A stretch of DNA of 64,000 nt, from NCBI GenBank assembly GCA_001606155.1, contig LODT01000028.1, forward strand, positions 782,735 through 846,734, in the 5' to 3' direction. Source of the DNA: Tieghemostelium lacteum. Taxonomy: Eukaryota > Evosea > Eumycetozoa > Dictyosteliales > Raperosteliaceae. The notes under the pieces were generated by a model. The model saw only the letters and a list, made by a program, of their open reading frames with translations, was not told the DNA's origin and made no database searches. Positions 13,201 to 60,010 of this stretch are shown here, piece by piece (the stretch's first letter is position 1; the number at the start of each line of letters is the position of its first letter). The translations under genes were made by a program, and so were the position numbers.

Positions 13201-13908
13201 GAACAAGATATCACATTGGAACAGTGTATTGAGTTATTTACAACCGAAGAGAAACTTGGTGAACAAGATCCATGGTATTGCAATCAGTGTAAGAAACATC
13301 AGAGAGCTACCAAGAAATTTGATATATGGTCTGCTCCACCCATTTTAGTTGTTCATCTCAAGAGATTCTCTTACAAGAGAACTCTTCGTGATAAATTGGA
13401 TATTGTTGTTAAATTCCCTCTAAAGGATTTAGATTTGTCTCCATTTGTCCTCAATAAGGATCAACCATCTCCAGTCTATGATCTCTATGCTGTATCTAAT
13501 CATTTTGGTTCTTTAGGTGGAGGACATTACACTGCCTTTGCCCTTAACGAACTTGAAAATACCTGGTATAGATTTGATGATAGTTCTGTCTCTGAAACTC
13601 AAAATCCAAATAGTATCGTATCTGATGCTGCTTATGTATTATTTTATCGTAGAAAAGATACCCATAATCCCGATTTTCATTTACATCAATCTTTACAATC
13701 TGAAACTCCAACTACAAATTCAGATTCAACTACTACTACCACTACAACTTCTACAGAAACTAATAATAATAATAACAACAATAATAATAATACAAATAAT
13801 ACAAATGATACAACATCAACAACAAACAATACTACTCATGAAAATGGTAGTGATCAAAATACCACTACCAATGGTAACAATAGTGTAAATGGTCATAGTG
13901 ATATCTAA
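10299..13908 (+). CDS. Ubiquitin carboxyl-terminal hydrolase, USP4/11/15 type
   Basis: Cysteine deubiquitinase. Exon 1 is 10299-10407 (MTESPGIASN...), intron 10408-10648, exon 2 10649-13908; 1122 residues. Join: GSFS then DLILKMENINQ; the acceptor tatag at 10644-10648 is the one that keeps frame. Low-complexity Ser/Asn/Gln leader, then a DUSP domain at about 165-290 (GEKWCPVNAIWYHKW), a ubiquitin-like segment, and the USP core. The Cys box is GLTNLGNTCFMNS with catalytic C394; the His box GGGHYTAFAL carries H996, followed by WYRFDDSSV. Zinc-ribbon pairs CPEC and CNQC are present. The two halves of the core are separated by a Gln/Glu/His-rich insert near 700-780, as in USP4/15. A Thr/Asn-rich tail ends the protein. 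It looks catalytically intact, unlike the USP-like domains of the RNF213-like genes. Confidence 0.93.
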
Positions 13909-16458: not shown

Positions 16459-19400
16459 ATGGGAGATCCTCTTGATGCAAATAAGTCCTATAGTGAACAA
16501 TATGGGCAAAATAATAATAGTATGAACAGTAACAATAGGAATAACCCTTTTCTACAAAACCAACCAATGTATGATAGCGCTTTAATTAATCAATTGTCAC
16601 AACAACAACAAAGACAATATATTACACAATATCCACAGCAGCCACAACAACAACAACAACAACAACAACATCATATGTATGGAAATTTACATGGATTTCC
16701 AAATACATTCCAGGGACCCCCAACACAACACAATAACCAATATATAGGAATACAACACTCACAAGATGGACCATATATACCAAAACCAATGCCAATTGAT
16801 AATGCTATGTTTGGTAGAAACGTCTATCAAATTCCAATACAAGATGTTGATATGGGACAACCAATACGTTATACAGAAAATCAATCAACACCATCATCAT
16901 CTGAATACTCTACACCTCCATCTATTCACTCTATGTCTATGGAAAATCAATCATCTTCTATTGCATCTATGGATTATAATATGGAATCTTCAGATTTACC
17001 AAACAATGATAACACAGGTGTTCAAGGTGTTTTTTCTAGATTAACTAGAATTAAAAACTTGTTTGCTCTAACACCCAGTATACCAAAGATTCCTGTAGAT
17101 TTCTTTGAAAAACCACTAGAGGAACTAGTACCAAAAATGGCACAGGCTGATAAAAAGGCATCAAGTTACTACTATGCTGATACCTTATTTAAAATTGAAG
17201 CCAATACCATCTCAGAAAGTTCAGCTATAGAAGCTGTACTAAAAAACATTGATAAAGCATCACATGACTCAGAGAAAAAGAAACTCATTACAATGTTTAA
17301 CTATTCCACCTTTCATAACCTTTTAGTACCAATGGTATTAATGGCTGTAAGATTTGATAGGTAAGTAGATATTAACCTCCTTTATGGTAATATAGATAGG
17401 ATACACTAACTATTAATTTAATTACTATATAGTGATTCTAGTGTATTAAGACATTTAAATTCAAAATCATTAGTTTTGAATAACCTTTTCAAAGTCATAG
17501 ATCCAAGAATGAAAGGACATGTTGAGAAGTTTATTGAAAAGCATATTGGTAATATGAGTTTGGAATTGAAGATTCAGATTGTTGTAAACTTTGCTGAATA
17601 TGTTCCACCTAGTCAGACTAAATTCCCAATGTTGAATTCAGTTTTTGATGAATTTGATAAATTAGCACAAAATGAACAGTTGAATTCGTCAATCAAGAAT
17701 GTAATGGCAAAGTTAAAGACACCAGCTAGAAAGAATGTTTTTAATATTCTGAAGCAACGTTATAATCTGTCTTTATCAAGTATATATGCAGAGTCACAGA
17801 GTGCCTACGCCATCAGAATCAAAGGTCAATATTTACTGTTATTCTTGATTACTGAGATTGAATGTGAACTCACTATAGCCAATGAATTCATTTATGATGT
17901 CTATAGAGATATTGATAAGATTGTAGATCTTCAAATTCTCACTATTCGTGTCAAGATTGCTTGTAGATTTTTAAAGAAACTGAATAATGAAGAGAGAAAA
18001 TTGTGTGCTAAGATATTGTATAGATTGTTTATCTATGACCCTGAATCATTCCTGAGACATGTAATTCCATTGCACTTTGACAATAGACAGTATGTCGATG
18101 AAATTCTTCAGCATTTTGAATCACAATTCACAGGTGATAAAGCTATTATGCTCTTCTCGGCAATCTGTAAATCAGAGGAATACTATGACTATTTCTCACC
18201 AGTTCTTCATAATCTATTAAAGAAGAAGGATGACAATCCAAAGAATAATATGAAGTGTCTGATGGAGGTATTTAAATCTCAACATGAACATCTAAAGAAA
18301 CTTCAACTTGCATTTCTAGATAGTGCCACTCCTCACAATATAAGTCTTATCTTTCTAAATTGTCCAAATTCACAGTTTATTCCAACTAATAAGCCTGTGA
18401 ATCAATTTAATTCCATTTCACTGATTTCTCAAGGTGAAACTGAATACCTAGCTCAAATGGACAAAAGAATGGTTTTAGACTCTACCACCAAACTCAGTTA
18501 TTTCTTGTATTGTCAAGATGTTGTGCAGAATCTAGTTTCATCATTTGAAGATCTTCAGACTAAAACTTACCTTACTGGTAAACTCAATGCATTCCTTTCT
18601 GGCTATGGTGAGAGGTTACCAAATACCTTACCATTCTTGATACTCCTAACAGAACTCATTCGTAATGTTCGTCTTTTTGTTGACTATAATAACATTTATC
18701 AAGATGTTGTCACTAAATTCTGGTTGTTACGTAAGAATGAGAGAGCACATTGGAACAGTCAGTGTAATGAGTATTATCAAGTACTGGATAATTTCATTAA
18801 TAACCTCATGTACAGTCTACAAACTATCAATAGCAGTTATGAACCCACCAAGAGAGATCTCTATATGAACTACTATAACATTCTAGTTTCATTTCAACAA
18901 AACAATTTGGTATCTATTGATTTAATTGAGTTCAACTACAGAAACAATGTTAAACGTCTGGAGAACCTTATGAAGATCTCGACAGTGTTGAACGAGTACT
19001 ATGGTTTTAGAATTGAGGATGGTAATGCACAAGCTGATCTACCTATAACTGACCGTATTGCAATACAAGAAAAGAGAATTATATCAGCTCGTGGGTCTAA
19101 AGGTGACTATTTCAAGAATCTTCAGAGTCTTGACATGATGATTCATTTCTCTCTAGTTGAACCATCAACATTCTTCCAAATCATCTTTCAGTTCTTTTTT
19201 GATAATGAATATCAATTAGATATTGCAATGGAGTCTACTAAAGTGTACATGAAGAAACTAGTTGACACTGATCTCACTATTCCATTGAATGATGTTTGTA
19301 ATAAGATATCAAATATCAGAGAGGAACAATATCAGAAAGAGTTACAAATCATCTCTAAGTATTTCTACCCTACCAAGAACTATGATGGTGACACTTTAAT

Positions 19401-22400
19401 CTCTCTAAAGTTATTCATTGACAAGGCTACCCTTCTCTTTGGTCTCAGAGATAACATTGTTCATCTCAAATCCTTTGTTGATAACTGTAAATATTTGAAT
19501 ATCAAAGGTCTTGATACTTCAATTCAACAAATTATAGAAAGAGTTGTTTTCATCATTAGAAATAACAAGTCAGTTCGAGAGGCAGAAGCTACAATGCAAG
19601 AAATCAACAACAAATACATTGGGTCACTAAACCACCACCATTTGTCCATCTTTAAATGTATTACACCTGAACTCATGGATTTCTATTCATCATTCTTTAC
19701 ATTACAATCATTTGATGATAACATTCAAATTACATCATTTAATTTGATTGGTGATCAGAAGAACTCAAATCTCTTGGATAATTCAGTTTATCTCAAGAAT
19801 TTATTGTCTGATATCATTCAACATAAAATGGATTTTGAAAAGAAAGGTGTAATCACTGAATACGAGTTTAAAGATTTCTGTAACATGATTGCTAAGATCT
19901 TCCAAAACAATACCTCTACCACCCAAAATATCTTGAAATTTGTAAATGATAATCTTTCACACATCAAGAGTCTTTTGAAAACTGGTGGAACTCAATCATC
20001 CCAGAGTTCATTACAAACTGCTATTGCAATTCTTGAAAGTTCACATTTCAGAAGTGATGCAAGTAAATCAGCATCTGGATCTGTTGGATGGTCTCTCACA
20101 ATCAAGAAATCATCACACATCTTGACTCACGATAAAGTTGAAGATTGTGTACAGGGTCTAACCATCTTCTCCACACAAGATAATCAAGAAAACAAGAAAC
20201 ACATTGAAACATTCAAAGATCTCTTTATCATCTTACAAAGTATTCATTCACTCCACATTGAACTTGATAGACTCTATCATCCAGAATTCATTGATGGAAC
20301 CATTACTTTTGATGTTTCTGGTAAATCCATTGATTCACTTCTTGCTTTGGAAAAGAAATATGATTTAATGATTACCAATTGGAAAACAATTATCCAAAGT
20401 CTTCCAAGACAACTTCTATTATTACGTGCACCTGGTATTTCAAGTCTTATCAGTCTCCTCAGAGGATTACTGAATGAAAATAACCCCAAGGGTAATGTTG
20501 ACAAGTTTGCAACTACTTTACTTAGATTCATGAAATATTGTATAACTGCTGAAGTAATCAATATCCAAGTGATAAAGAACACCATCATTGGTATTGGTGA
20601 TGCTCTATTTGCATCAAAAGAACCAACTAATTTCCTAAATCTATTTATTCCAAAATATTTAGAATCATTGGGGATTGATGATGATGATAGTCCACCAAGA
20701 AGAAATCAGAATGAGACAATATTCACTTTTGTACCTCTGGAGAAAAAGAGTAATCTTTTGAATGCTCTCATGCAATTGAATCAGTCATTGCCACATCCAA
20801 GACAACTCTTCTATGCTCATTCATTCAAACAAGATATTGATTTCTTCTTTAAAATAGTTGCAAGATTCCCAGATGAAACATTCTTTGTCATTGGAATTCC
20901 TCAAGAGAAAGAGAAACTTCTCAATTGGATTTCTAAACATTTCGCTGAAAACACCATAATGGACTTGGCAAAAGTCTATTTTGTCTCAACTGAAGAATCT
21001 GCTGCTAATAGTGAGATATTTTCATTCCTTTCTCAACACCAAACTCCATTCAATGAAGATTGGTCAAATTTCAAAGAACAATGGAAGAATAATTGTTACA
21101 AGAACTCTCATTTGAGACATGTAAAGAATTCACAATCAGTTTCATTGAACTTGGTTAAAGGTGTTTCTGGAAGTGGTAAATCTCATTATATCAGATCAAA
21201 ATGTAAAGGTAAACAAACCATTACAGTTCTAGTTCGTCATGAATTTGATTTGAATACTCTTGTCGAAAAGATCAGTTTACTCAAAGACAACAAAGAAGTA
21301 TTCATTCATTTCATCATTTCACCATTGTGTTCATTTGATGTTCTCAATCAATGTTTATACCCACTGATTGGATTTGGATTCATTTTTGGCAGTAAAGGAC
21401 ATTTTATCAATATTGATGAAAGTCTATCAAGTATATTCATTGAAATTGGGTCACCATTGGACAGTATTAATGGAAACTTCCAAAACTACAATGATTATGT
21501 ACAACAATCAATTCCAATTGTTTTCAATTTGGCAAACCATGAAAACCACAATATGCAATGGGATATAACTGATATTGAACGAACATGTTTCTCATTCACC
21601 AAATCTAACATGATTGAATATCCTGATATTAAAGCAGGAGATGGAGTTTCATTTGATGATTATCTAGCACACATCAGAAACATTATTGATAACAAATTGA
21701 AAATCAAACAATCTGTTAATTTCCTTAAAGAAGCTGGTTTCTGTATTCCAAGAAAGAATTTCCTCAGCCTTATGCATGAAAGATTACAATTTTTGGATGT
21801 ATATTACCAAAATTTGAAAAAGTATAAAGACATCAGTGAGAATCAAGCCTATGATGAAAAAGAGAGAATGTATATCAGTGGTACTATGAAAACTTTCCTT
21901 ACATGTGAGGAACTTTATAATGTACTCTTATTGGAATCCATTCAGTTATCTGATCCACATTACTCATCTGTTGATGAAATCTGGAAGAATCCACCATTGG
22001 TTACTTCAAGATCCATCTTGTACTCTGTGATTGAAGATGAAGTAGATATTAAACCCATTGTTGACTTTATCGATTTTAGTGGAAAGGGTAATGTTCTTCC
22101 CATTAATAAGCAACATGCATTGTTCTCTCTCCAAAGAGCCAAAGAAAAACCAAAGGAATTCAAAACTGCAATTTCAAATTCATTCAATATCACAACCAGA
22201 ACCTATATCATTAACGATTTGTCAAATCAATATGGGTTTGTTCTGACAAATGAGTTGGCTCATAGATTGGTAATCTTGAACAACAAGATCAAAACACAAA
22301 GATCTTTGATTCTTACTGGTGATACTGGTGTTGGTAAGACTTTTATTCTGATTTTCTATTCATTGTTAATCAATGCCTCCAATAATGCCATTCCAGATAT

Positions 22401-25400
22401 CATCTTTGATATTAAAGAAACTGTCAACAAAATTCTGAAAGAACCATACTACAAAGAGTTTAAATTGAAACCAATCACTATAGATGAAGATACAACATAT
22501 GGAAAGATTCCTGGTAATTGTAATGTTAACCACATTATTGATGCCATAAAACAAATGTACAATTATGAACCACAACCTCAACCCCAAGTTCAACCTCAAC
22601 CCGTAGTTAATAACGCTCAACAACCTAATGAACAAGCTGTTGTAGTTCCACCACCAAATCCTCAAGTTGCCAGAGCCAATCTCTTCAGTAAGATGGAACA
22701 ATCAATCAAAAAGATTCTATTGGAGAATCAATTGGTTTTCTTACCAAATACATCACCTTTGAATTTGATTAAGTCTTCAGCAGAAGACCAAAAGATCATC
22801 ATTAAGTTGGAACAACTGGTTTCGATGACCAAAGAGATGTGTTCAGTTAAATTCCAAAATCTATTCCATCGTATCATCATGCACAAGAAATTCAGCTCAA
22901 AAGAATTCAAAATCTTTGTTTTGGATATTGTAAGACAATCTTTTGAATTATCTAAAATTGATATAACATTGAAAATGGTTGTTTTCATTGATGAATTCAA
23001 TACAAGTCCTGATGATACTCTTGCTTTGATCTCTGAAATATTCATTGATGGAACACTTGATGGTGAAGGTCCACTTCCTAATAATATCTTCTGGATTGGT
23101 GCAATGAATCCATTATTAGAGTCTAAGGATAATATCAACTACACTGGTAAGACTAATGAAAATAATTTGGCATTCATTGTTCAAGAAATTCCACCATCAA
23201 TGAAGAATCTATTCTTTGATTATGGAACTTTCCAAGTCCAACAAGAAGAGAACTTTGTTGACACTCTCTTTAATTATCAACCTATTGTTGAAGAGAAAAT
23301 AAGTTATGATGATTTGTCAGTCTACAAGAAACATTTGAGAGATAGTATTCTCATTGGTCAAAGAACTCTCAGAAATGCAAATCAATCAAAGACTCATGTT
23401 TCAATCAGAGATATCATGAGATCGATTGATATCTATAAATTCTTCAAGACTGATATTGGTATTCTAATCTTGAGATGCTATTTCCCTAATATCGATAAAG
23501 AAAATGACAGCTATCTCATTCATTGGTTGGCTATTATATGTTCATTCTACATGACCTACGTCTATAGAACTAGTATTCAAAACACCAAGAGAGATGATAT
23601 GATTTCTGAATTTGAAGCATTAATCCTCAGTAACAATGTAGACCAACTCACCAACAGAATGTCATCTATGAAAACATTCCAATCAATATACTCTTCAATG
23701 TGTGATGAAGGTGTAACTAAACTCCCAGAAGGTATTGCCAGAACTGATTCACTACAATTGAATATATTCTTTACCATTGTCAGTATTGGATGTGGGATCC
23801 CATTATTAATCATTGGACCTCCTGGTTGCAGTAAAACACTCTCTTTCTCAATTGTTTTAGATAATATCAACACTCATAAAGATGATAAATCATCATTCTA
23901 CTCACTCTTCCCAAATGCAGTTGCATACAGATACCAATGTTCTGAACACACAACTGATGTTGAAGTCAAATCAACTCTTGATCGTGCAATTGAAAGACAA
24001 AAGTTTGTTGGTGCTGCCAAAGAGAATCGTGTTAGATGTATTATTCATTTCGATGAAGCTGGTCTTGTTGATGAAAGACTTTCACCAATGAAAGTAATGC
24101 ATGATTATCTTGATAAACTATCTCAGAAAACAAAACAAACTCAAGCACATGAAGATATTTCTATCATTATCTTATCCAACAAGATGTTAGATGCAGCCAA
24201 AGCCAACAGAATGTTAATTCTATTACATCCTCCAACAATCTCTGAAGAAGATGAGAAAGCATTGGTTATGGGTTGTCTCTTTGGATACAAGAAACAATTA
24301 TCCAATCATGAACATTTCATTTGTAATGCATTATCTAATAGTTATAAAATGGTCAATCAATTCTCAAAAGGAACCAAGGAGAATCTCTTCCATCAAAGAG
24401 ACTTTGTTTTCTTCCTCAGACATCTTCAGAGATCTTATCAGAAATTTGGATCAATCACATCAGAAGGTCTTTTAAATTCATTAGAAAGACATTTCAATGG
24501 TATCCCTTTGAATGATTTCCAAAATCTTGTTACTATCTTCTTTAGAAATCTTAATCTAACTGAACTCTCAAAGAATGATAATACCATTCTGAGAATTCAA
24601 GAATCACTTCAAGAAAGACTCTCTGATGGACAAAACCCCAATACCAGTGCATTCAGATACATGATGCTCATTGATCCATCTGAAAATGAAACCTCATTGA
24701 TGATTCTCAAAGAACTTGGAATCAAACATAAAGTCATCAGAATTGGTGGTTTTGAAAAAGACAGAACACCAGAATCTTTGGTATCAGTTGTCAGTAAAAT
24801 CAAGAATGAAATGGAACTTGGTGGTACTGTTGTATTGGTAAATACTAAACCAATTGATTCATGTTTCTATGATGTATTCAATAGATATTTCCAAATTGTG
24901 CATGACCCCAATGGAACTGTTAGATTCGTTGCAAATGTATCATTTGGTACTCACAGTGCAACATGTTATGTTCATCCAGATTTCAAGATCATTGTTCATT
25001 TACCATTGAGTCAAATGAAGAGTACCCACTTACCATGGTTGAACAGATTTGAGAAATACTATCTCTCTGTTGATCAACTTCTAAACCACTTCATTTCCAC
25101 CAATAACAAAGAAAAGAAATCATTCTTTGAATTACTGTTGACATCTGCTAAACATTTTGTTGATGAATTCCATCACAAGAACACCAATAACTCATTATTG
25201 TTTGGATATTCAAATGAAACAATTTCGTCATTGGTTTATCTGATTGCCAAGAAATCTATAGTTGAAAACAATGCAACAATCAATCCATACAGAGTTCAGA
25301 ATTTCAATGCTGAAAACGAAGAAGACCAAAAACAATCTCAAGAAAGAAACGAATTCCGTCACTTCAATTGGAAATTGTTGCAAATTGCCAGACCAGAGTC

Positions 25401-28400
25401 TATATTCAAATGTAAATCACTTCCAAAGTCTTACATTAAAGAATATCTCATCTATCAAGAGCATTTCAATTGTTTGAGATTCCTTCATTATCTCTATGAC
25501 GATTTCAACAATAAGAACAACAGTCCAAACATTCAATTCAACAAATGGGTTCTCTACACCAGAACATCATTGATATTCCATAGATTGAAAGATAATGAGT
25601 ACATTGATGCATTCTATCAGATTCTCGCAAAGAACATCAGTCCAACCATCAGTAAAGACACTTTGAAAATCATTCAACTCCACACTATAGATTCAACTAA
25701 CAAGTGTAATGATGAAATGAAATCATTCAAGGAGTCTAAAACTCAAAATATCTTGATGGTATTTGCAGATTTAACATTAGTCAATCAGAACCAGATCAAT
25801 TACATTCTGGAATCATTTGATAACACTTATAATAAGATTATGATTATTGTTTGTCATTTCCCACCAGAATACTCAATTTACAATCAATCCAAGATTCACT
25901 CTATTTTCCTCAACAATACTGAATACCTCTACATTGATTCATTTGGTATTAATGTTGATTCTTCTATTACTGAATCCTCTGCAAAGTTGGTGAATCAAGA
26001 TATCAGAAGTTGGGTTGCACAAGCATATGGTATTGAAGTTAAAGTCAATCAAGAATCTCTATTCCAATCATTCAAATCCATGTTTTATGAGCATCTTCGT
26101 ACCATCTCACAAGAACTCATTTATATCCCAGGGCCACTCATGAGAGGTGTTCCACAAATGAAGGGTAACGAACAGATATTCTACAACAACAATTTGAAGA
26201 GATATGAATTGGTTGAGGGTATCTTTAAAAAGAATGAAGTTTGGGTTTACCAAATCATTGACCAATTTGTTAAAAATTGGGGTTCTAAGAATATCTTGAA
26301 TGAAATCATCACCAATATCTCAACTCTCATCAATACTGGTCGTTTGGTTAGATCTTTCATTGACTCTATAAAAGATTCGTTGACATCTTATTTCTATCCT
26401 GTAATAAGTCAAATCTATAAAATGATGTTCAATTATAGATGCTATTTAGAATTGGAGAACATTCAACCACAATCATCAGAACAAGAATTAGTAAGTCTTT
26501 TCATTGGTAGTATTAAACTACCAAAGATCTCAGAGAATATAACACAGAGATTTGAGCCAATTAAACTACTTCCACCTCTATTCCCATTCCAAATTGCCAA
26601 GTTACCTCTATATGACTCCATTTCTCTTGTCTATGATAATTATTTCAATGCATTCATTAACTCTGTAAAGATGAAGTTACAAAAAGAGGTACAAGAGAAG
26701 TTTGAAGAGTTTATTAAAACAAGACCAATTAATGTTCTCAATGATTTCTTGGCTAACCAAAACGATTTCAACAATAGTTTCAGATTTGATTATCTGACTA
26801 GAACAATGAAGATTGAAGAGAATCTATTTAGATTACTTAGTAATCTCCTGTTAAATCTTAACCAGGTAAAGACTAATTCAGTCACACAATTCTTTGTCAC
26901 TAACTATTTCTACAGTCACTTGGTATTGTTCATTCGTTCTATAATATATCCAGTTATCAACCTGAAAAGAGATTCTACAGTTGAGTCACATAAACACATA
27001 AAGAATGAATTTATCAAAAATCTTGATCATTCCATTGTAAGTTCTTACAATGATACCAAGAAACTCAAGAGTCAATTAATATTGAACTCATTCAATGCAC
27101 TAGGATCATTCATTGAAAGAATATTGGATAGTGATGAAGTAAACATTGATGATGTTGTTGAATGGATGACTGCAACAAGAGAAATGCTCAATAGATCACC
27201 TATCGAATCAACTCTTTTGAATATCTCTGATATCAAGGAAACTAAAGAAACCAAAGATCTAATTGAACAACACAAGAGAACTGCCATCAGAATCAGTTCT
27301 CTCTACCACATTTTCCTCTTCATCAGCAGTAACTTTGAGAAATCACATTTCATTCCAGTTATCAAATCACTAAAACACATCAAATATCATGATTCTCTTT
27401 CTGAACAAAGTATCATTCTTCTTCTCAGCCAACTTCTCAACCTCAACAAACAACTTTCACTTGAGAAACCAGGTCTTTCAATCAGTCTTGAGGTAATCTT
27501 GGATATCATTGAACCATTGGCATTGATGAAGAATGAATCAAATCTCAATGAATTCTTACAACTCTGCAATGGAATTGACCAACTTCCAAATGGAATGAAA
27601 GTACCACCAATTCCAATTGGATGGTATACCAGTATCCTCTCAATTCATTTACAAAAGTACAGAAACAAAGTAAACGAATTATCTTCTAAAATATTCTTTG
27701 GAACTGGAATTTTGGAATTTGTCACTCCAAATTCATTATCCAACAACAAAATCATTGATGATTTCATCAATTGTTCACTTCCACCAACTCATAAATCATC
27801 TAAACTCGCTGATTGTCTCTATTACCTCTATCTTGTTGAATATCAAGATTCCAAGAAGAAGCTAACAATCATTGATGCAATTGAAGAGAGAACCAAACAA
27901 CTTACTGGTTACAACTACGATAGAGCCCATAATTTACCAATGAAAATCAATACCATTGCTCTTGAGACTTGGTTAATTGAAACATTCTGTGAAATGTTAT
28001 CAAGAGAAGGTAAATCAAATGAAATTCTCAACAATAGAGATTTCACAATACTTTTGAAATCAATATTTAAAGTTGGATTGGGATCAAACAATACTCCAAC
28101 AATGGAATATCAAAACAGAAATAACCAGTTACTCTTTATCAATAAGATTGCTGATCAACAAATTCTCTTTAAACTACTTCAAGATAAAGCCTTCCTCGAT
28201 GAATTCTCTCTTGATAACTTGCACTTGAATAACAATATCAATGACAGCAACCAACACAGTCTTCCATTTGTCTATCTCGAAGGAAATATTCATTTATCAT
28301 TCTTCATGAAAGTTAAAACCACACTTTCAACAACACCTCTAAATATGACTACTTTGGTAAATGAAACTGCAACTCCAATTCTCAAAGGACTCTTCAGATC

Positions 28401-31400
28401 ATCCATGTTCATTCTTCTCTACCAAGATTACATTGCTGGTAAAATTCTCACTCCTTACCAAAACATTCTTGCTGACAAGGCTTTGAAAACTCATTTCCAA
28501 CTTGACCCAGTTTTGAGAATCTACGAAAAAATCATCAACAATTCATTTGGAGATAATATATTTGATGATATTCTCAAAAGAGATGTAAACAAGAGTAAAG
28601 ATGATACAACAATGTCACATATGATTATTAATTTTGTTGCAATGTCACTTGGTTCCAATGATAAATCTTATCTCTTCAATCTCACAAGAGATCCATGGAA
28701 GGTTTGCAGTCAGTACTTCCCAGCTTGTGATGTTGGACACATGTTCAGAGACTGTGGTATGAGACATAATGAAAAAGATATCACACAAACAATGGGTTGT
28801 AATATTCAAAAGAAATATATTGTATCATCAACAAGTTGGTCAATATTCGCTTACACTGTCAGTGTTTATCCTGAACATTTGGCTAGATTCAATAATGATC
28901 AACTTCATTTCTCTTCTCAATTGGATAACAAGACTTCAATCAATGCATTGATTTCCTATGTATTTGAAAGAGGATTCTATTCAATTGTTGATGTCAAAAA
29001 CAATCCTGAAAACATTAAGCTCCATGTTGAACCATGTCACTTCCTCTCAGAATTCATCTATGAAGTTTGGAAACACTCTTACGAAACCAACAACCCAGCA
29101 ATGAAATCATTCTTTACAGCAGATAAAGATGCATTGGCATATGAAAACCAAATTCTAATTCCTATCATTAACAAACTCTATATCGAGTATCCAGTTAAGA
29201 GTGCACATCTCATTAACATGATTGAAAAACAATCTGTTAAACATGCCAACTATCTCAAGATTAGACATGAGATGACCAAGGTTTACAACTCACCAATCTA
29301 CTCATTCAAATTCATTAAGGATTATATTTCATCATTCAATGATCCTAAATTGAAAAACCTCAATTTCTTCTTAAATCAAGTAGATATGGTTTGCATCTCC
29401 ACTCAATTCCCTTATCTAATCAATTTCTTGAAACTCTTCTTCCAACATTTCAGAGACCGTCTCACTCAAGACCATATTAACTGGACCTTCATGCAAGTGT
29501 ATAATTACCTCATTGAACAAAACTATGAAAATATCTCATCTTTGGCCTCATTGAAACATTCTTGGGATAAATTAAAGATTTCATGGGAAAAAGTTACCAA
29601 ACAAATTCAAGAACTGAGAGTTGCATGTGAAGCACAAGAATCACCACAAATTAAAGATGATACTCCTATATCTGCATTCTTACCTCTTATCGAGGGAAGT
29701 AATGGTGCCATTATTGACACATTAGATACTTGGATGAATAAAACTCAAGAAGAGTGCTTGAATCTCTTGGATGATATAGATATGGAACCACTTTCAGATC
29801 CACTCAGAAAGATTATTGGTGGACTTCAACCAGATGTTTCCAAACATGATATCACTGATATACCAATGGAATATGGTGACAACTTCTTGTTGATTGGTTC
29901 AGATTTCACCCCAGAAACATTCCAATCCTATCTCATCAAGAATATCTCACACTACCAACACTTTGAAAGAGATAAATTCCGTCCAAATCTCAGTAAGATT
30001 CAAACCAAGATGATTGTATCCTACATGTCTGGAAAGATCAATGCAACTGGTCAATTGAAATCATTCAAGAATAAATTCCCATTCAAGAAACAGGTGGCAA
30101 TTCATATCAAGGATAAGAAACCAGAGTCAAAAGTTCAAGATAAAGTTCCACAGTCCATTAAAGATCTTCAATCTATCATTGAACAAGTAAATGTATTATT
30201 CTACAAGAAAGACTCTGATCAACAAACATTGATAAAACTATTATCATTGTGCAAGAATCACGATATTCTTGATGATGTTGCTCGTTATCTAGGAAGAACA
30301 TGCAACAAGATCAACAATGAAAAAGAGGATCCAAATCCCGACATTAACATTGTAGAGTACACTGGTGAATCTAATCTATCAAGAGAAATTGTTCACACTC
30401 TAAAACAAATTCCATTGAAATCACTCTTGAAAGTCTGTGATCTCATCATTGATGAATACCTCTCTTGCGGATATCTTTACAGTAATTTGATTCCAGAATT
30501 CACCAATCAATTGAACCAACAATATAAAACTCATTTCACAGATTTGAAGAACAACATGGTCTCTGAGTTCTATCAAGGACAAATGACTCAAGAAAAATTG
30601 AAAATCTTTATTGAATTCCTTAAGAAGATTCTCACCAAATTCACATCTAATGAATCAATTCAATCTATCAAGGTCAACATCAATGGTTTGTTTTATGATA
30701 AAGTAAATGAATATATTTTGGAAATCTGTCAATCAATACCCAATCCATTCAAACACACTGATATCCAATCAATGTGTGAAAAGAAGATGCCAATGTCAGT
30801 CTATCCTCTCTTTTTGAGATCTATTCATGAAGTGCTCTCAGTTGCTCTATCTCAATTTGAAGAAACTGAAAAATCCACACCTTACAAGGAACCATACACT
30901 AGTGATGTACATAACTATGAAAACACTCAAGATCAAGATGAAGAGCAAGTAGATGAAGAAAATGGTCAAGAACAAAACAACAATCAAGAACATGACCAAA
31001 GTGAAGACCAACAAGCTAACTATCAAGAAGAAGAAGAGATTGAAAAAGACTTGAATATTGATATTCTAGGTTACCATAATAATGAAAAAGATGATGACGA
31101 TGATGATGATGATGAAAATCAACAAAATGAAGAAGACCATCACCTCTCTCCTCTGGATATAACCTATGGTACATTCTCTCTCAGATCAATTCAACCTCTA
31201 GCTAAAGATTTTCCAAACTTCCGTCACTGCATTTACAATTGGATTAGATATATGCCTGAATTTGACAATCTATTGGCTGTAAATATCAAAGGTCAATTAG
31301 AAAGATTACAAAACTATCTTATTCTATTCAGAAAGAAATCACAAAGTACCAAACATCTGACTCCTATCGATGTTGAAAAATTAGATACACAATTTGGATT

Positions 31401-33820
31401 AGATACACCAATTTTCAGTCACTCTGATCCTGTGGAAACTATGATTACTTACCTTGATGCCATCTCTAATATTGACCAGACCACTAAAGAATATTACAAT
31501 TGGAGTATCAGAACACATTGTAAGACTTGTAAAACATCATTTGATCATATGAATATCAAATTAGCAGTATCTCCATTCTCAGTTGCCAAACAAGGGGACA
31601 ACTCTCTTTCTGATATCTTCACCAAGAAAATCAATTTCAAATCAATCAACCATCACCCAGCATGTAAACACACTCCAACCATTGAAATTCTTTCACTTCC
31701 AAGATACCTATTCGTCCCAATCAATAGAATTGAATCAAGAGATATCCACAACAGAGTACCAGTAGTCAATGACACAAGAATTGATTTGAATGAAAACATT
31801 TTCATTCCAGCAACACTAAAGAACAAGAACAATTCTTATTCAATTAATGGAGTCATGGTATGTACTTTATTTATTCCTTATTTTACAATTACATAATATA
31901 TTATTAACACTCTAATTATAGTCAATTGAAGAAAATGAACTTTTCACAATTAAAATCAAAAAAGATAACATGTTTGTAAGATGCTCAAATAGAAGCAATA
32001 ACATTGTAATTGATGAAAATCACCATAACTTTACTCAATGTGAAACAAATTGTGTAATGGTTGTTTTGAAATTAGAAACAAGTTATTATGATGAAAATCA
32101 AAGAGAAGATTTAGTTGTTGATGATAACCAACGATATGTTGATGAAATTGATGATTCTCCTTTAGATAACCCAGTTGTTAAAACACCTAAACCACAACAG
32201 CAAGGTCTGCCAATAGGAGTGCAAATTGAACAACCTCCTAAATCCAATATTCAAAATTTCCGTCACCCTGTCATCCAGAATCAATCTCACTATTCACAAC
32301 AAAATTTCAATATTGGTTTCAATAATCCAAAGATGCAACAAAATATAGTTCCACCACAACAACAGCAGCAACAGCAACAACAACAGCAACAACAACAACA
32401 ACAGCAACAGCAACAACAAGATGTGAAACAAATTCCAACAATGCCTACCTATAAACCACCTACACCACAATTACAACAAAAGGTAGAGAAATCAAATATA
32501 GTTGGTGAAAATTCCTCAGCCAAAGATATCCTCATGAGTAAGTTAGCTGATTTGTCATTGAGTAAGCCTATAGCAAAAACAAATCCAACTCCAATACAAC
32601 AAGAAGTTAAACCTTTGCCAATCAACAAACCTCCTACAACTACAACCACAACAACTTCTGGGGTCAACAACCCAATTATACCAATTAACAAACCTCCACA
32701 AACTACCACTACAACTACAACAACTTCTGGTATCAATATCCCAACAATGCCAATCAACAAACCACCACAAACTACGACTACTAGTTCTCCTGTCTATCAA
32801 CCTACTCCTGTAACTCCCCCAAGTACACCATCACCAAATCCAATACCAACATCTCCTCTAACTGGTAGTTATGGTATTGGTTCTTCTGTTAATAATCCAT
32901 TAACCAAATCAGTGAACGATGATGTTACTCTTGGTGTAACCAATGTGCCATCTCCTAATTCTCAAGTCACTGCAAGTGGTATTGTTAAATCCAAAGCTGA
33001 GTTACAAGTTATCTATGATAAAGGACCAAAAGAGTGGATAAATACTCTAAAACTACCAGAAACATCTAAACAACAGTTAATCAAATCACTAGAGGCCAAT
33101 AATATTAGTGATTTCATTTCACTCTTCAGATCAACTCCAACTGATTGGGAAAAACTAGTACCTGCACTTGCTGTCAGAAATATCTTGTTAAAGTTTGTTG
33201 AAAATCTCAAGAAATCATTCCTTGATCAAGGTGTCATCACAGAACTCAATTTACTCGCTGGATCAGGTGTAGTAAAAACAAAAGAACAACTTCAAGAGAT
33301 ATTCGATGGAGGTGTCATTCAATGGATTAACACTTTGAAATTTGGTCAAAAATCCAAAGATGAGATTATCAGTGCACTGGAATCATCAGAATTGACTGAT
33401 TTCTTCTTCCTCTTCAATTTCACACAATGGAATGTTTTATTCCCAATTGAGAGCAAGAGAAATATTCTTACTGGATTCGTAGAAAAACTCAAACAACAAT
33501 TCATCCAAGCCTCTGTCTTTACAATTGATGATTTAATTTCAAGTCCAATTACCAAATCCAAAGAAGAATTAGAAAAAATCTATAATAATGGTTCAATTGC
33601 ATGGATCAATTTATTCCACATGACCGAAAGATCTAAACTTGATCTCAACAACATAATAGTTTCACAAGGCATTGAAGATTTTCTCTTTACATTGAACTAT
33701 ACTGATTGGGATATCATCCCATCTGTCAATATTAGATCTATCATTTTACAACATCTTGGAAAATTGAAATCAGCATTCATCTCTCATGGTATCATTGACC
33801 CAGATGATTTAGTATTTTAA
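16459..33820 (+). CDS. RNF213: RNF213/mysterin-like giant AAA+ protein, copy A
   Basis: Three exons (16459-17360, 17433-31857, 31922-33820) give about 5741 residues. Order: Gln/Asn-rich leader (1-200); helical arm (~200-1500); AAA+ region with P-loops GVSGSGKS (1544), GDTGVGKT (1930, Walker B VVFIDE ending at E2155) and GPPGCSKT (2429, Walker B HFDE, E2509). The stretches LSNKMLDAAKANR and LPWLNRFEKYYL are diagnostic of RNF213. An E3-shell-like helical module follows (~3060-4300) with CDVGHMFRDCG at 4066, where RNF213 has its RZ finger. There is no RING. Then come a helical segment (~4540-4800), an acidic stretch, a USP-like domain without catalytic residues (~4884-5180; CKTC at 4997), a Gln/Thr/Pro linker and three ~90-residue repeats (5459-5741). 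RNF213 ubiquitinates bacterial lipopolysaccharide and coats lipid droplets in animals; the function here is inferred from homology. Confidence 0.9.
30477..30934 (+). repeat. Segment of copy A nearly identical to 60011-60467 in copy C
   Basis: Codes for YSNLIPEFTNQLNQQY through HNYENTQD. The matching stretch in copy C (opposite strand) differs at only a few bases by eye, whereas flanking copy A and C sequences are clearly more diverged or not aligned. This points to recent sequence transfer between the genes. Confidence 0.8.
32357..32419 (+). repeat. CAA/CAG repeat, 21-residue polyglutamine
   Basis: Twenty-one consecutive Gln codons mixing CAA and CAG in exon 3 of copy A, within the disordered linker before the tail repeats. 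Mixed codons suggest moderate stability. Such tracts are common in dictyostelid proteins. Confidence 0.9.
32970..33810 (+). repeat. Three tandem ~90-residue protein repeats in copy A tail
   Basis: Each unit follows the pattern K(S/T)K-x-(E/Q)L, a Gly then W(I/V)N, SK, DF-x-x-(L/F), W, RNIL or RSII, LK-x-x-F and a final (G/S)-(I/V). The units begin near VKSKAELQVIYDKG, VVKTKEQLQEIFDGG and ITKSKEELEKIYNNG. Copies B and C carry the same three units. The units are mostly helical by composition; I do not recognise them as a known family. Confidence 0.85.
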
Positions 33821-41729: not shown

Positions 41730-44700
41730 ACTATTTTATGGTTAATTTGTAATACTTATTAATAAAAGAGATGTTTATTTAAATTACAAAATCGCTTGGT
41801 TGAACAACACCATGAATGATGAGTGCTGATTTTAATTTATCAAGATGTTGTAAAAAGATACTTCTGGTAGAATCATAGTTATAAATCTCATTCCAATTAG
41901 AATTTGAAATGTTGAATATATAAAGAAAATCATTATTGAATATTTCTATTTTTCCATTGAAATAGTCTTTAGAGTCTTGTGTCATGTTGAATGAATTTAT
42001 CCATATTTTTGTTCCATTTTTAAATATCTGTTGTAACTCTTCTTTAGTTTTGGTGATTGGATTTGAAATTAAATCATTATTAACTATTATAGAATGAGAT
42101 AAGAATTGGTGTTTGATTTTATCCACAAATCCAATGAAGATATTTCTACTTATTTCTATTGGTAATAGATTATCCCCACTGTGTGAAATTGAAGAGGAAG
42201 AAGAAATCTGTTAATCTAAATGAATTTAATGCATCGATAAGTTCATCTTTGGACTTTTGATTAAAATTCAGAGAATTTACCCATAAAATGACACCACTAT
42301 TGAAAATCTCTTGAAGTTGGTCTTTTGATTTTGTGCTACTAGATATTCTATCACTAAGACTCCTCTCATTGATTATACCATGTTCAAGGAATGATTTCTT
42401 GAGTAATTCAAATAATTTATATAGCATGTTCCTTAGTGTTGGTTCTGGAACTAGTTTTTCCCATCCACTGATTGGCATGGTAAAAATGGAAATATAGTCA
42501 GTTACTTCTTTTGAACCCAAAAAATTTACCAATTCTTTTGGTCCTCTTTCATATAAAATTTGTAGTTCAGCTTTATCATATTGAAATAGTGCCTCATTCT
42601 TACTATTAATATTATTTATATTATTACTATTATCATTATTTATATTACTATAGATGTTGGTATCTGGTTGAAAATTGTCAGGAGTATTACTATATTTAGA
42701 AATTTGAAGTTCTATGTCTAAAGTGTCTATCTCGATTGAATTAACTTCTAAAATAATAAGAGAACAATTATTTTCATATGGACTAAAATCAAGTCCATTG
42801 ATAATATTTGTACCCGATTGGAGTGAGCTCGAGATAAAGTTATTATTTTTTTTAGATAACATGGAATACACTACTTTATCCCTAGAAATTTCACTATACT
42901 ATATATGAAGTTAGTAAAAATTCTTTTGAATTATAGTTGAGATCACTTACCAAAACTGAATGAATTTTAATTGAATAGTCTTCTAGGTCTTGGGGAGATG
43001 TAATAGTTTCATTTAAAACTATTCTAAAATCTCTAGCTAGCTTTTTAGGTTGTAAAATATTATGTAAACTTGGTTCTTCAATTCTGTCAATTGGAACAAA
43101 AATGTATTTTGGATGACTTTCAACTTCATATGTAAGTTTATGCCCGCATGGTTGTTTAATGTGGTCACCAACCAATAATTTCTCGTTGAGGATAGTTGAT
43201 AAATACACGGGTTCTAAATCAGAATCAATGCCAGAGAAGGAATCTAATGGTACATAAATGTCAGGATGATTACATTTAGTATTACAGATCACACAAAATG
43301 AAGTGATGGTCCATGTAAAGTATTTTAGTGCTTCTGGGTGAATTTCTGAGATTTTGTCCAACAGTTTAACCAACAAACCAATTGGTTTGTCAATTGGCTG
43401 ATCATTTGATAATTCCATACACTCTAATAATAGGTTATCTAAATTTTGGATATTTAAATATAAATGAGTTGTAGATTGTGCTTCCTTTTGGAATTTTGCA
43501 ATGGATTTTTGTAATGGTCCAGTTTGAGAAAAAATTAAATTATTAAACTCTGGACAATAACGAATCCAATGGTAAATGCTTCTACGTAGACCATTAACAT
43601 CATTATCAAGTGGTGTTATATGAATAGTTGAACATGGTTGATAGATAGCATCAATAACTTCAGTGTTTTCTTCATTTACATAAAATGCATCAATAGGTGT
43701 ATAATCATCAATGTTGTCTTGATTATGATTATCAGATGTGTTGGTACCTTCTCTATCTGAAGAAATTTCAATAGATTTTTCCAACTCTTGGTCTATAGGT
43801 AGCGAAAAATCCTCTATGGTTATAGTGAGCTCATCAATTTCTGATTTTGTGAATGGCAAATTACTTAAAGAGTTTGAGTTTATGGAATGGTACATCTTTC
43901 CAGATAAAACTGTAATCATTAATTTGTTTTGAATTTCCATTAGATCAGGCTTGAATTGATCTCTATAGTTTGTTTGATAATAGGAGATGTTCTCTTTCAA
44001 AAAGGATTCAAATGCATTTGGTGTTAAATTTGAACCCAATAGAGAGAACTTGTTTTCAGTATTTTCAATATCCATGTCCATGATATCACACTTAGATCCA
44101 TCAAAACTACTTATAACATTCTTCATAGATTCTGATAAATTTTCATCTTCAATTTCATCTAGAATTCTCATAGTTTTACTCTGAATTTTTATCCACTCAT
44201 TGATAATATCCAAAATAGCACCAGTATTGGCCTCTGAAAGTGGTAAAATACTTTTTATAGGTGTTTCATCATTGATTTTTGGTGTGGATCTTGGATAAAT
44301 ATAGTCTCTAATCCTGTTGGAAATGAGTACCCATATTTTCTTTAGTTCTCTCCATGAGTTTTCCAACTTGGTCAAAGATAATGTATCATATTTTTGGTCA
44401 AGTAGATACTTGTGTATTTGTGGAAAATTCCAATTTAATTGATCTGCACTCAGATACTTTTGGAAATGATGAGAACATAGCTTCAAGAAATTAATGAGGT
44501 TGGGAATATACTCTGAAATTGATAACATATCAACTTGATTCAAGAAGAATACTAGAGCTTTGAGTTTAGAATCATTATTAGATGTAATGAAATCTTTGAT
44601 GAATCTGAATGAGTAAATTGGTGAACTGAAGGATTTGGCTAATTCTTGTCTAATCTTTAGATATTCAGCATGTTGTTTGGATTTCTTTTCAATCATCTGA

Positions 44701-47700
44701 AGAATTAATTCGTTCCTTTTTGGATATTCGTCATAGATTTTGTTGATGATTGGGATTAATATTTGATTTTCATAATCCAATGCTTCATTTTCAGAGCAAT
44801 AGAATGATTTCATTGATGTATTCTCGTTGAGTTGATAAGAGTGTTCCCAAACATCATATATGTATTCTGAAATGAATTGGCATGGTTCTAAATGGAGATG
44901 GAGGTTTTCTGGATTGTTCTTGAATTCTTTAATTGATGAGAGTCCAAAATTAAATACATAGGAGACCAATTCATTGGTTGAAGTCTTGTTTTCCAATTGT
45001 GGCGAGAAATCTAGTTGTTTATCATTGAATTTTTCCAAATATTCAGGGTATACACTGATAGCGTAGGCGAGTATTAACCAACTTGTTGATGATACAATGT
45101 GTTTCTTTTGAATGTTACCTCCCATTGTTGAAGTGAAATCTTTATCATTGTGTTTCATTCCATAATCTCTGAACTTATGACCAGCATCACAGGCTGGAAA
45201 ATAGTTACCTGCAACTTTTAATAGATCTCTTGTGAGATTGAAGAGATAAGATTTATCATTGGAACCAAGTGACATTGCAACAAAATTAATAACCATGTGT
45301 GAAATTGATGTTTCAAATTCATTTTTGTTGGCATCTTTTTTGAGAAGATTATCAAGTAAATTGTCTCCAAATGAATTATTGATGATCTTTTCATAGATTC
45401 TCAAAACTGGTTCAAGTTCGAAATGAGTTTTCAATTTCTCATCAGTAAGGATACTTTGGTATTGTTTGAGAGGTTTTTCTTCATTGTAATCTTGGAAGAG
45501 AAGTATTAACAATGATGATCTAAAAAGTCCTTTGAGAATTGGAGTTTCAGTTTCATTTACCAATTCACTCATATTTAGAGGTGTTGCCGAAAGAGTTGTT
45601 TTAACTTTCATGAAGAATGGATAATGAATATTACTTTCAAGATGGACAAATGGAAGCTTGAATTGGTGGCTAAAGTCAAGTGTGTGATCCATATATAGAT
45701 TACCAAGAGAGAATGAATCTAAGAACTTTTTATCTTGAAGTAGGTTAAAGAGAGTTTGTTGATCACCAATCTTATTGATGAAGAGAAGTTGATTCGATCT
45801 ATTTTGGTATTCTTCTGCTGATGAACGTTGGGATTCGTCTACTTTAAATAGAGAGTTTAGGGTGGTGAATACTTTGTCATTTAGAATAACACTTGTTAAA
45901 CCATCATTTGTCAGTATTTCACAGAATTTTTCAATCAAGAATGTCTCTAGAGCAATGGAGTTGATTTTCATTGGTAGATTATTCTTTGGGTCTTTTTTAA
46001 ACTTCTCCATTAGATTACTTCTCTCAAAAATTATATCCAGTAAGGTAAGGTTCTTTTTTGGGTCTTCATAACCCTCTACTACTGAATGATAGAGACAATT
46101 GGCAAGTTGAGATGATTTATAGTCTTGTGGAAGAGAGAGATTTAGGAAGGAATCAATTATATTATTACTTAATAATGGTGAGACAAACTCGGAAATATTA
46201 TTGGTTGCAAATATTTCAGCAGAGGTTTTCATTACTTGTTCACGAGATTCTTGTAGTTGACTTGATATCATTGATGTGTACCAACCTTCTGGTATTGGAA
46301 GAGATGCTGAATCATTTGTTATACTATCAGTTCCATTACACAGTTTCAACAGTTCATTGAGATTTGTTTCATTCTTCATCAATGCCAATGGTTCAACGAT
46401 ATCCAAAAGTACTTGGTTAGGTATAAAAAGGTCATGGCTTTCTTTTGGTAGCAGTTGGTTCAGTTGAAGGAGTTGTTGAAATACTTTCAAGATACTTAAT
46501 TCAGCTAGAGTATCATGATATTTGATTTGTTTTAGTGATTTGATGAGAGGAGTGAAATGTTGATTTTGAAATTTACTGCTGATGAAGAGGAATATTTGGT
46601 GGAGAGTGTTGATTTTGATTATGGATTTCTGATGTTTTTCAATATTATCTTTGGTATCTTTAAAATCAGAGATCATCAAAAGAGTTTGTTGGACAGACGA
46701 TCTATTGAACATTTCTCTTGTTGCATTCATCCATTCAACAATATCATTAATGACTATTTCACTGCTCAAAATTTCATCAATAAAGAATTCGAGTGCATTG
46801 AATGAATTCAATATTAATTGTTTCTTGAGATTCTTGGCATCATTGAAATTTATCAGAATGGAGTTTTCTATATCCTCTATAAATTGATTCTTAATGACTG
46901 TGTATTGTAATTTTGCTGAATCTCTTTTGAGATTAATTACTGGGTAGATGAAAGAGATTATAAAGAATACCAAGTTACTGAAGAAGTAGTTGGAGACAAA
47001 TAGTTGTGTTACTGAATTTGTCTTGTGGTTATTAAGTTTTAATAATAGTCTATTAATTACTTCAAATAGATCTTTATCAATCTTCATTGTTCTGGTCAGA
47101 TAATCAAATCTGAAATGATAATTTAAACCTGGGTAATCATGGTTGTTATCTAATAATTCATTTAGACCCTTAATCGATGATTGATTGATGAATTCATAGA
47201 ATTTCTCTTGAATACTTTTAGGTGACTTATTTCTAAGCTTATCTAAAGTATAGATAAAATAATTTTGGTATAGATTGGAAATTGTGTCATACAATGGTAA
47301 TATGGAATAACCATCTGAGAGTAGAAGCTGGAATTGTTTTAATATCTTGGAATTCTTTGGAATACTAATAGTTTCTATGAATTTACTGACCAATTGTTGT
47401 TCAGGTGATTGTGGTATAATACTCTTCAAGGTATTAATTGAACGATAATTGAACAACAAACTATAACATGTTTCTATATATTGGTTGAACACGGAGTAAG
47501 ATTTGGTTTGAATCATTATACCTCTTGAATTACTAGATTGATTTGGATCTAAAAATGTATCTAATGCCCTATTCAATCCAAAATGTTTGATAAATTGGTC
47601 AATGATCTGATTAACCCAACTTTCATTATATTCAAAGATAGTTTGGGCCATTTTCAATCTTTTTGACTTGTTGGTATAGAAAAGTAGTTCATTCTTATCT

Positions 47701-47795
47701 AATTGATATTCCTCAATATTTGAGGGCTCAATAAAGAGATTAAATGAAATTGTGTTGAGGTGTTCATAAAATTTTATATTATACACCTTTTTGAG
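41730..47795. repeat. Duplicated block, copy B side
   Basis: Direct-repeat partner of 53955-60010. From about 43.7 to 46.9 kb the offset to the partner stays exactly 12249, so there are no net indels, and base differences are few. A 15-base insertion in B near 46910 ends this. Towards both ends (exon 3; 47.0-47.8 kb) differences increase. Covers E3-like module, USP-like domain, tail repeats and 3' UTR. Confidence 0.85.
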
Positions 47796-50785: not shown

Positions 50786-53200
<2,415 letters not shown>

Positions 53201-59900: not shown

Positions 59901-60010
59901 TCGTTCATTCTTTTCTAATTGATATTCCTCAATATTTGAGGGCTCAATAAAGAGATTAACTGAAATTTTGTTGAGGTGCTGATAAAATTTTATATTAAAC
60001 ACCTTTTTGA
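53955..60010. repeat. Duplicated block, copy C side
   Basis: Partner of 41730-47795, same orientation. Contains the second E3-like module, USP-like domain, tail repeats and 3' UTR of copy C. The tail exon here keeps a full frame where copy B has a one-base break. Confidence 0.85.

What the first reader, a model, noticed from the sequence alone, without database searches (positions are those of the whole stretch)
16459..33820. RNF213-like AAA+ giant fused to a USP-like domain and a new repeat tail
Seen: RNF213-type AAA+ motifs (GDTGVGKT, GPPGCSKT, LSNKMLDAAKANR, LPWLNRFEKYYL), no RING, then a USP-like domain and three tail repeats in one protein of ~5741 residues. Known: animal RNF213 has AAA+, RING and RZ-finger E3 parts but no USP-like domain. 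Inference: a dictyostelid-specific architecture joining ligase-like and deubiquitinase-like folds, possibly for handling bacteria.
Basis: partly seen in the sequence, partly recalled or inferred. Interest (0 to 1): 0.85.

Follow-up and report, generated by a model that had tools for sequence, protein, structure and literature searches.

The report
RNF213-like amoeba giant with pseudo-deubiquitinase
A slime-mould-like genome carries a small family of giant motor proteins related to the human antimicrobial protein RNF213, most of which carry what looks like a disabled ubiquitin-removing domain and new helical repeats, and none of which shows the ubiquitin-attaching fingers known from RNF213.

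Summary
Exons 16459-17360, 17433-31857 and 31922-33820 give 5741 codons without a stop. RNF213-specific AAA+ homology is strong (profile E 4e-49; only RNF213 chains matched). The host genome holds five copies with the AAA core and one without. Paralogs D and E read AAA core, USP-like domain and tail repeat(s) in one uninterrupted ORF, so the fusion is not a gene-model artefact. The USP-like domain is supported at profile level (colinear match to six true USPs, well above controls), but single-sequence support is weak: Pfam UCH E 1.9e-4 in paralog E, below the family cut-off, and nothing for this copy. In the preferred alignment the catalytic cysteine is Asn (A, D, E) or Gly (B), and this copy has no histidine at the catalytic place, so it is a probable pseudo-USP; another register would keep a Cys. 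No RZ finger was found in any copy and no RING in the regions scanned. The tail repeat (one to three per gene) is a confidently predicted helical bundle, weakly SAM-like. Best reading: an RNF213-type AAA+ machine that docks on ubiquitin-marked targets through a dead USP domain and assembles through its tail. Function is inferred; 'ligase joined to deubiquitinase' is not supported; 'dictyostelid-specific' was not testable.

The parts
16459..17360 (+). Exon 1; aa 1-238 are a Q/N-rich leader mostly without matches in paralogs, conserved part starts near aa 217-239; start codon not proven
17361..17432 (+). Intron 1 (GT...AG)
17433..31857 (+). Exon 2 (N-terminal arm, AAA+ core, post-AAA region, first four fifths of the USP-like domain)
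21160..21183 (+). P-loop GVSGSGKS, position of RNF213 AAA2 (assignment inferred from order)
22318..22341 (+). Walker A GDTGVGKT (AAA3 by order), identical in paralogs A-E
22978..23001 (+). Walker B VVFIDEFN (AAA3), identical in paralogs A-E
23815..23838 (+). Walker A GPPGCSKT (AAA4 by order), identical in paralogs A-E
24040..24066 (+). Walker B IIHFDEAGL (AAA4; [IV]IH[FL]DEAGL in A-E)
22903..25194 (+). Region with significant RNF213-specific homology (about aa 2125-2888)
25228..31077 (+). Post-AAA region, aa 2900-4849, where RNF213 carries RING and RZ; neither found, no PDB match of the profile up to E 10
31159..31857 (+). Pseudo-USP domain, exon-2 part (aa 4877-5109); preferred position of catalytic Cys is Asn4896 (a Cys follows at 4900); conserved C4997-x2-C5000 and C5045-x-H5047
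31858..31921 (+). Intron 2 (GT...AG); absent in paralogs D and E, where the reading frame is continuous
31922..33820 (+). Exon 3 with stop codon
31922..32083 (+). Pseudo-USP domain, C-terminal part (aa 5110-5163)
32084..32980 (+). Low-complexity linker rich in Q, T and P
32981..33268 (+). Tail repeat 1 (aa 5463-5558)
33269..33547 (+). Tail repeat 2 (aa 5559-5651); predicted helical bundle, pLDDT 90.6
33548..33817 (+). Tail repeat 3 (aa 5652-5741)
41782..50393 (-). Paralog F: N-terminal arm, post-AAA region, USP-like and tail; AAA core missing; reading frame breaks inside the second tail repeat
54006..64000 (-). C-terminal part of paralog B (continues beyond the window): duplicated post-AAA module, USP-like domain, three tail repeats

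Best explanation
The gene encodes an RNF213-related AAA+ mechanoenzyme without recognisable E3 fingers. An ATP-driven, probably dynein-like ring (shown: RNF213-specific homology and intact AAA3/AAA4 Walker motifs; the ring itself is inferred) is coupled to a USP-like domain that probably lacks catalysis (profile-level evidence), which most likely serves as a binding module for ubiquitin or a ubiquitin-like protein (inferred), and to tail repeats that most likely mediate self-assembly or partner binding (inferred from a helical-bundle model with weak SAM resemblance). Proposed sequence: other ligases mark a target such as a bacterium, vacuole or lipid droplet; the pseudo-USP docks the machine on the mark; ATP-regulated assembly builds a coat. 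Confidence in the anatomy is about 0.85; in this mechanism as a whole about 0.33.
For: RNF213-specific homology with Walker A/B of AAA3 and AAA4 identical or nearly so in 5 of 5 AAA-bearing paralogs. USP resemblance: UCH E 1.9e-4 over profile positions 22-245 of 254 in paralog E. hhalign of the A/B/D/E profile against six true USPs of the same genome scores 39.4 (P 8.5e-5, probability 60); 60 column shuffles reach at most 21.4, the reversed profile 15.8, and 32 other windows along the protein (A/D/E rows) at most 21.5, while the domain with those rows scores 46.6. Foldseek ranks USP entries 1-12 even from a poor model. Catalytic Cys column: Asn, Gly, Asn, Asn in A, B, D, E. Same order in one ORF in D and E. 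No RZ in any copy at E 1 genome-wide; no RZ or RING in the regions scanned. Tail repeat model pLDDT 90.6. ATP-dependent coat formation by RNF213 on pathogens is published (PMC11549300, passages).
Against: The E-paralog UCH match (21.5 bits) is below Pfam's cut-off (23.9), D has E 0.21, A and B none. A genome-wide UCH search at E 0.01 recovered none of the family copies, and the profile finds no USP in the PDB by sequence up to E 10. The USP model has pLDDT 41. The Cys register is uncertain: one alignment pairs the catalytic Cys with Asn4896, the other with a gap, and a shifted register would keep Cys4900 with the Asn three residues on, in A, D and E. No ubiquitin-binding residue was tested; pseudo-DUBs also act as scaffolds and USP52 cleaves through non-conserved residues (PMC10919355, passages). 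Paralog C lacks the domain. SAM resemblance has Foldseek E 2.6 and no sequence support. No expression data; the coat role is analogy.
Confidence: 0.33

Rival explanations
1. The post-AAA region is a diverged RNF213 E3 module that still transfers ubiquitin through an unrecognised site, and the pseudo-USP positions ubiquitin or substrate for it.
For: It follows the AAA core as the RNF213 E3 module does. A short conserved motif (ACDxGHxFRDCGM...MGGN) falls about where the RZ finger would lie (RNF213 position recalled) and loosely recalls C-x2-GH and GECG (an RZ sequence of this genome). In RNF213 the RING is dispensable for autoubiquitylation (PMC7311170, passages).
Against: No RZ or RING hit in 5 of 5 copies scanned at E 10, none for RZ in the family genome-wide at E 1, none in the motif alone in 4 of 4 peptides. 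The GH histidine is absent in D and E, the DCG cysteine is Tyr in B and C, and the CPxC pair is missing. In RNF213, mutating RZ metal ligands ablated activity, and a Cys4462/His4483 dyad is proposed as catalytic (PMC12075652, passages). No PDB match of the region's profile up to E 10.
Confidence: 0.25
2. The pseudo-USP is a rigid scaffold or protein-binding platform that does not contact ubiquitin; the machine remodels membranes or lipid droplets.
For: Pseudo-DUBs are described as allosteric activators or scaffold components (PMC10919355, passages). The domain is divergent between paralogs (36-44% identity to A) and absent in C.
Against: Nothing specific; binding surfaces were not tested.
Confidence: 0.25
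3. The USP-like domain is an active deubiquitinase, either with Cys4900 as nucleophile in a shifted register or through a non-canonical residue as reported for USP52.
For: A Cys lies four residues after the preferred position in A, D and E, with an Asn three residues further on as in canonical USPs; precedent for USP52 (PMC10919355, passages).
Against: That Cys is Ser in B; GNTC is absent in 4 of 4; copy A has no His between aa 5091 and 5143, where the catalytic His should fall; by eye a His is near the place only in E. The shifted register needs a one-turn deletion.
Confidence: 0.13
4. The USP resemblance is chance, or the architecture is a gene-model artefact of adjacent genes.
For: No UCH hit for A or B; genome-wide UCH search misses the family at E 0.01; AlphaFold confidence is low.
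Against: Controls; colinear near-whole-domain UCH match in paralog E; continuous ORFs in D and E.
Confidence: 0.05

Closest known systems
RNF213 / mysterin (vertebrate AAA+ E3 ligase)
   Same: RNF213-specific AAA homology, order of nucleotide-binding AAA units with intact AAA3 and AAA4 motifs, giant single chain with a large C-terminal half
   Different: No RING, no RZ finger, no CBM20 hit in copy A; post-AAA region not detectably similar; added pseudo-USP domain and tail repeats; tandem and dispersed copies
USP family (UCH, PF00443) and its pseudo-members USP39/Sad1 and PAN2/USP52
   Same: Colinear profile match, C-x2-C and C-x-H at the zinc-finger position, LPxYxFxPxxR core strand; probable loss of catalytic residues as in USP39
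   Different: Fused to an RNF213-type AAA+ core; not recovered by the genome-wide UCH search; Asn or Gly at the preferred Cys position
SAM domains (Eph receptors)
   Same: Small helical bundle; 8 of 13 Foldseek matches carry SAM in the title
   Different: E 2.6 at best, TM 0.54/0.64; no sequence profile support
DUSP-UBL-USP (USP4/11/15-like by domain order, recalled) gene at window 10636-13908
   Same: True USP of the same genome, used as a yardstick
   Different: Separate gene with a canonical GNTC motif and GHY

Membership tests
RNF213 E3 ligase family | RNF213-specific AAA+ core with competent AAA3 and AAA4 | tested here: met
   (motifs only; activity not tested)
RNF213 E3 ligase family | Six AAA units forming a dynein-like ring | tested here: inconclusive
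   Three P-loops seen and significant homology only over about aa 2125-2888; ring not modelled
RNF213 E3 ligase family | RZ finger with metal ligands and catalytic Cys/His | tested here: not met
   the genome's two RZ hits lie elsewhere
RNF213 E3 ligase family | RING finger | tested here: not met
   no RING-like Cys/His cluster among columns conserved in 4 of 5 or more of A-E (by eye)
RNF213 E3 ligase family | E3 shell/core/CTD fold | tested here: inconclusive
   No sequence match of the profile to PDB chains, RNF213 included, up to E 10; fold not modelled
RNF213 E3 ligase family | CBM20 carbohydrate-binding domain | tested here: not met
   No Pfam hit in copy A at E 1; other copies not scanned; a diverged domain could be missed
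USP deubiquitinases | USP fold | tested here: inconclusive
   Profile evidence for it is good; Pfam cut-off not reached, genome-wide search misses it, structure model too poor
USP deubiquitinases | Catalytic Cys in the GNTC motif | tested here: not met
   Motif absent in 4 of 4; preferred column Asn in A, D, E and Gly in B; register not certain
USP deubiquitinases | Catalytic His | tested here: not met
   Not at the place in A, B, D by eye; a His lies at about the place in E
USP deubiquitinases | Ubiquitin binding | not testable with these tools
   needs protein
SAM domain | SAM fold and sequence profile | tested here: inconclusive
   Fold weak; sequence not supported

The most novel reading that the evidence does not exclude
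A lineage of RNF213-type machines in amoebae is not a ligase but a ubiquitin reader: a dead USP domain recognises ubiquitin laid down by others, and repeat tails polymerise the machine into an ATP-regulated coat. This would make the AAA+ coat-former the ancestral part of RNF213, and the E3 fingers a separable addition.
Probability: 0.18. Interest if true: 0.8.

Novelty: new variant of a known kind. Interest (0 to 1): 0.57.

Why it matters
RNF213 is a human antimicrobial and Moyamoya-disease protein in which the roles of ATPase, coat formation and ligase are hard to separate. Natural relatives that keep the ATPase core but lack the known E3 fingers, and carry a ubiquitin-enzyme-like domain instead, could show what the core does on its own, in a group of bacteria-eating amoebae that can be genetically modified. 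The cluster also shows duplication, deletion and mosaic similarity among giant genes, as is often seen in defence genes (recalled, not tested).

Tried and rejected
(1) Pfam on the USP-like domain: no hit for A and B; D E 0.21, E 1.9e-4 with 21.5 bits, below the 23.9 cut-off. (2) Genome-wide UCH search: 30 matches at E 0.01, none in this family. (3) PDB sequence search with the four-sequence USP-like profile: no USP, two weak designed proteins. (4) AlphaFold of the USP-like exon-2 part with three window sequences: pLDDT 41, unusable by itself; Foldseek gave 240 matches, none at E 0.001, of which 44 of the 50 listed are USP-family entries by title (chains not checked), best E 0.19. (5) SAM homology of the repeat: hhalign finds only a 12-column out-of-register match; its score of 17.7 is just above the maximum of 100 shuffles (16.5) but is no domain match. 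(6) A vestigial RZ finger: no Pfam support. (7) Relatives in viral or prokaryotic contigs: none by the pattern-based scans. (8) Papers (search listings): RNF213 with Dictyostelium, 3 papers; RNF213 with amoeb*, 20 of 21 listed; mysterin, homolog and amoeb*, 0; RNF213 with ubiquitin-specific protease domain, 3; RNF213 evolution/protist terms, 20 of 94 listed. By title none is about an amoebozoan RNF213 or an RNF213-USP fusion. Searches did not force RNF213 and none of the 10 rows listed in each held it, so they say little. Subscription papers and preprints are mostly not in that library, and a database annotation may exist. (9) Separate genes: rejected because D and E are uninterrupted.
Full report
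Gene model. Splicing out 17361-17432 and 31858-31921, both GT...AG, gives 5741 codons with no internal stop. The start codon is not proven; the Q/N-rich leader is not conserved. The window lies in contig C23 of a 23.33 Mb, 43-contig genome. Its size and composition fit the dictyostelid Tieghemostelium lacteum, but that name is recalled and was not tested.

A family, not a single gene. With 900 aa of the AAA region, the genome gives five matches: A (this gene), B and C (same contig, minus strand, within about 55 kb downstream of A), D (C23, about 1.73 Mb) and E (C42). A sixth copy, F (window about 41782-50393, minus strand), keeps the N-terminal arm, the post-AAA region, the USP-like domain and the tail but lacks the AAA core, and its frame breaks in the second tail repeat. 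The post-AAA region has nine matches: seven full length in six genes (B carries it twice) and two short remnants with stops. The USP-like domain has five matches: A, B, D, E, F; C lacks it. The tail repeats have ten matches: seven strong ones, all in this family, and three elsewhere at E 0.026 or worse. Repeat numbers are three in A, B, C and F, two in D, one in E.

The fusion is real. In D (ORF of 5046 codons) and E (5050 codons) the AAA core, USP-like domain and tail repeat(s) lie in one uninterrupted frame.

AAA+ core. phmmer of A (aa 1302-3634) against the PDB gives nine sequences under E 0.1, all RNF213, best 5e-39. A five-paralog profile gives nine under E 0.01, all RNF213, best 4.4e-49, over about aa 2125-2888. 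GDTGVGKT with VVFIDEFN, and GPPGCSKT with [IV]IH[FL]DEAGL, are kept in A-E, and a further P-loop G[VIP]SGSGK[ST] lies before them. This matches RNF213, where AAA2 holds ATP and only AAA3 and AAA4 are competent (PMC7311170, passages seen). Assignment to AAA2/3/4 is by order.

No recognised E3 part. Over aa 2900-4849 or its equivalent, 0 of 5 paralogs hit a RING or RZ model at E 10 (for B only its first module; HMMER drops most matches above about 0.1). The five-paralog profile hits nothing in the PDB up to E 10, and conserved Cys/His do not cluster as a zinc finger (by eye). A genome-wide RZ search at E 1 finds two places, neither in this family; the C11 one reads as an NFX1/ZNFX1-type helicase by eye. 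A motif near aa 4065-4092 (ACDVGHMFRDCGM...TMG) sits roughly where RZ would be (RNF213 position recalled) and loosely recalls it, but four peptides give no RZ hit (one typed peptide was inexact) and the key residues vary between paralogs. In RNF213, mutating RZ metal ligands ablated activity and a Cys4462/His4483 dyad is proposed (PMC12075652, passages), while the RING is dispensable (PMC7311170, passages). Ligase activity is therefore unsupported, though not excluded.

USP-like domain. Single sequences are weak: Pfam UCH gives E 1.9e-4 (21.5 bits, cut-off 23.9) over profile positions 22-245 of 254 in E, 0.21 in D, and nothing in A or B. The genome-wide UCH search lists 30 matches at E 0.01, none of them in this family. 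A profile of A, B, D and E against six true USPs of the same genome gives hhalign score 39.4, P 8.5e-5, probability 60, with the C-x2-C, the C-x-H and the LPxYxFxPxxR strand in order. Controls: 60 column shuffles reach at most 21.4; the reversed profile 15.8; of 33 windows along the protein (A/D/E rows) the one that lies over the domain start scores 41.4 and the other 32 at most 21.5; the domain itself with those rows scores 46.6. AlphaFold on the exon-2 part with three window sequences failed (pLDDT 41), but its Foldseek list starts with 12 USP entries, and 44 of the 50 listed rows (of 240) are USP-family by title, all at E 0.19 or worse. That is supportive only, since Foldseek also uses sequence.

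Probably dead, not certainly. In the global alignment the catalytic Cys falls on Asn4896 of A; the same column is Asn in D and E and Gly in B. The local low-threshold alignment puts it against a gap. The GNTC motif is missing in 4 of 4. A shifted register with a one-turn deletion would pair the catalytic Cys with Cys4900 (Cys in A, D, E; Ser in B) and keep the Asn three residues on; I judge it less likely because it breaks the gapless match to the PxF end of the helix. Copy A has no His from aa 5091 to 5143, where the catalytic His should fall, and by eye only E has one near the place. Non-canonical activity, reported for USP52, cannot be excluded (PMC10919355, passages).

Tail. The repeat (about 93 aa) folds with confidence in the best models (five models: 90.6, 89.8, 66.5, 60.2, 59.4) as a helical bundle. 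Foldseek gives 13 matches, none at E 0.001; 8 of 13 carry SAM in the title, best E 2.6, TM 0.54/0.64. Sequence profiles do not support SAM homology. I call it a new repeat, weakly SAM-like.

Selection and mosaic history. Nei-Gojobori dN/dS is below 1 in all 11 comparisons run: for example dN and dS of 0.048 and 0.163 for A-B AAA, 0.224 and 1.18 for A-D AAA, 0.53 and 2.5 for A-E USP (saturated), 0.61 and 1.26 for A-B USP exon, 0.18 and 0.41 for A-C tail. A and B are 91% identical in the AAA region but 38% in the USP exon, which suggests homogenisation of the core beside a diverged C-terminal half. A piggyBac-type transposase lies between F and B. Such features are often seen in defence loci (recalled); positive selection was not tested.

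Mechanism. Shown: architecture, ATPase motifs, USP profile match, missing GNTC motif, missing known E3 fingers. Inferred: loss of catalysis, ubiquitin reading by the USP-like domain, assembly through the tail, coat formation by analogy with RNF213 (PMC11549300, passages). Whether the arrangement is dictyostelid-wide could not be tested; scans of viral and prokaryotic contigs with the AAA core gave no relative.

Noticed in passing
window 10636-13908 (+): A true DUSP-ubiquitin-like-USP gene (UCH E 1.5e-74; USP4/11/15-like by domain order, recalled) about 2.5 kb upstream of the giant gene.
   Followed up: partly
window 41782-50393 (-): Paralog F lacks the whole AAA core but keeps arm, post-AAA region, USP-like domain and tail, with a frame break in the second tail repeat; truncated gene or decaying copy.
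   Followed up: partly
window 54006-64000 (-) and beyond: Paralog B carries the post-AAA module twice in one ORF and lacks most of the stretch matching aa 600-1156 of A.
   Followed up: partly
window 50756-53200 (+): Transposase of piggyBac type (DDE_Tnp_1_7, E 5.2e-28; type recalled) between paralogs F and B.
   Followed up: no
window 16459-33820 versus paralog B: AAA region 91% identical (dS 0.16) while the USP exon is 38% identical (dS 1.3): mosaic, suggests gene conversion of the core.
   Followed up: partly
window 53563-53916 (-): Remnant pieces of the post-AAA region with stop codons, downstream of paralog B.
   Followed up: no
window 14959-15981 (+): GT10 fucosyltransferase-like gene (E 2.4e-34) next to the giant gene.
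   Followed up: no
L015 (C11:365676-365834): RZ finger in an NFX1/ZNFX1-like helicase, E 1.1e-22, the stronger of the two RZ hits in the genome.
   Followed up: no
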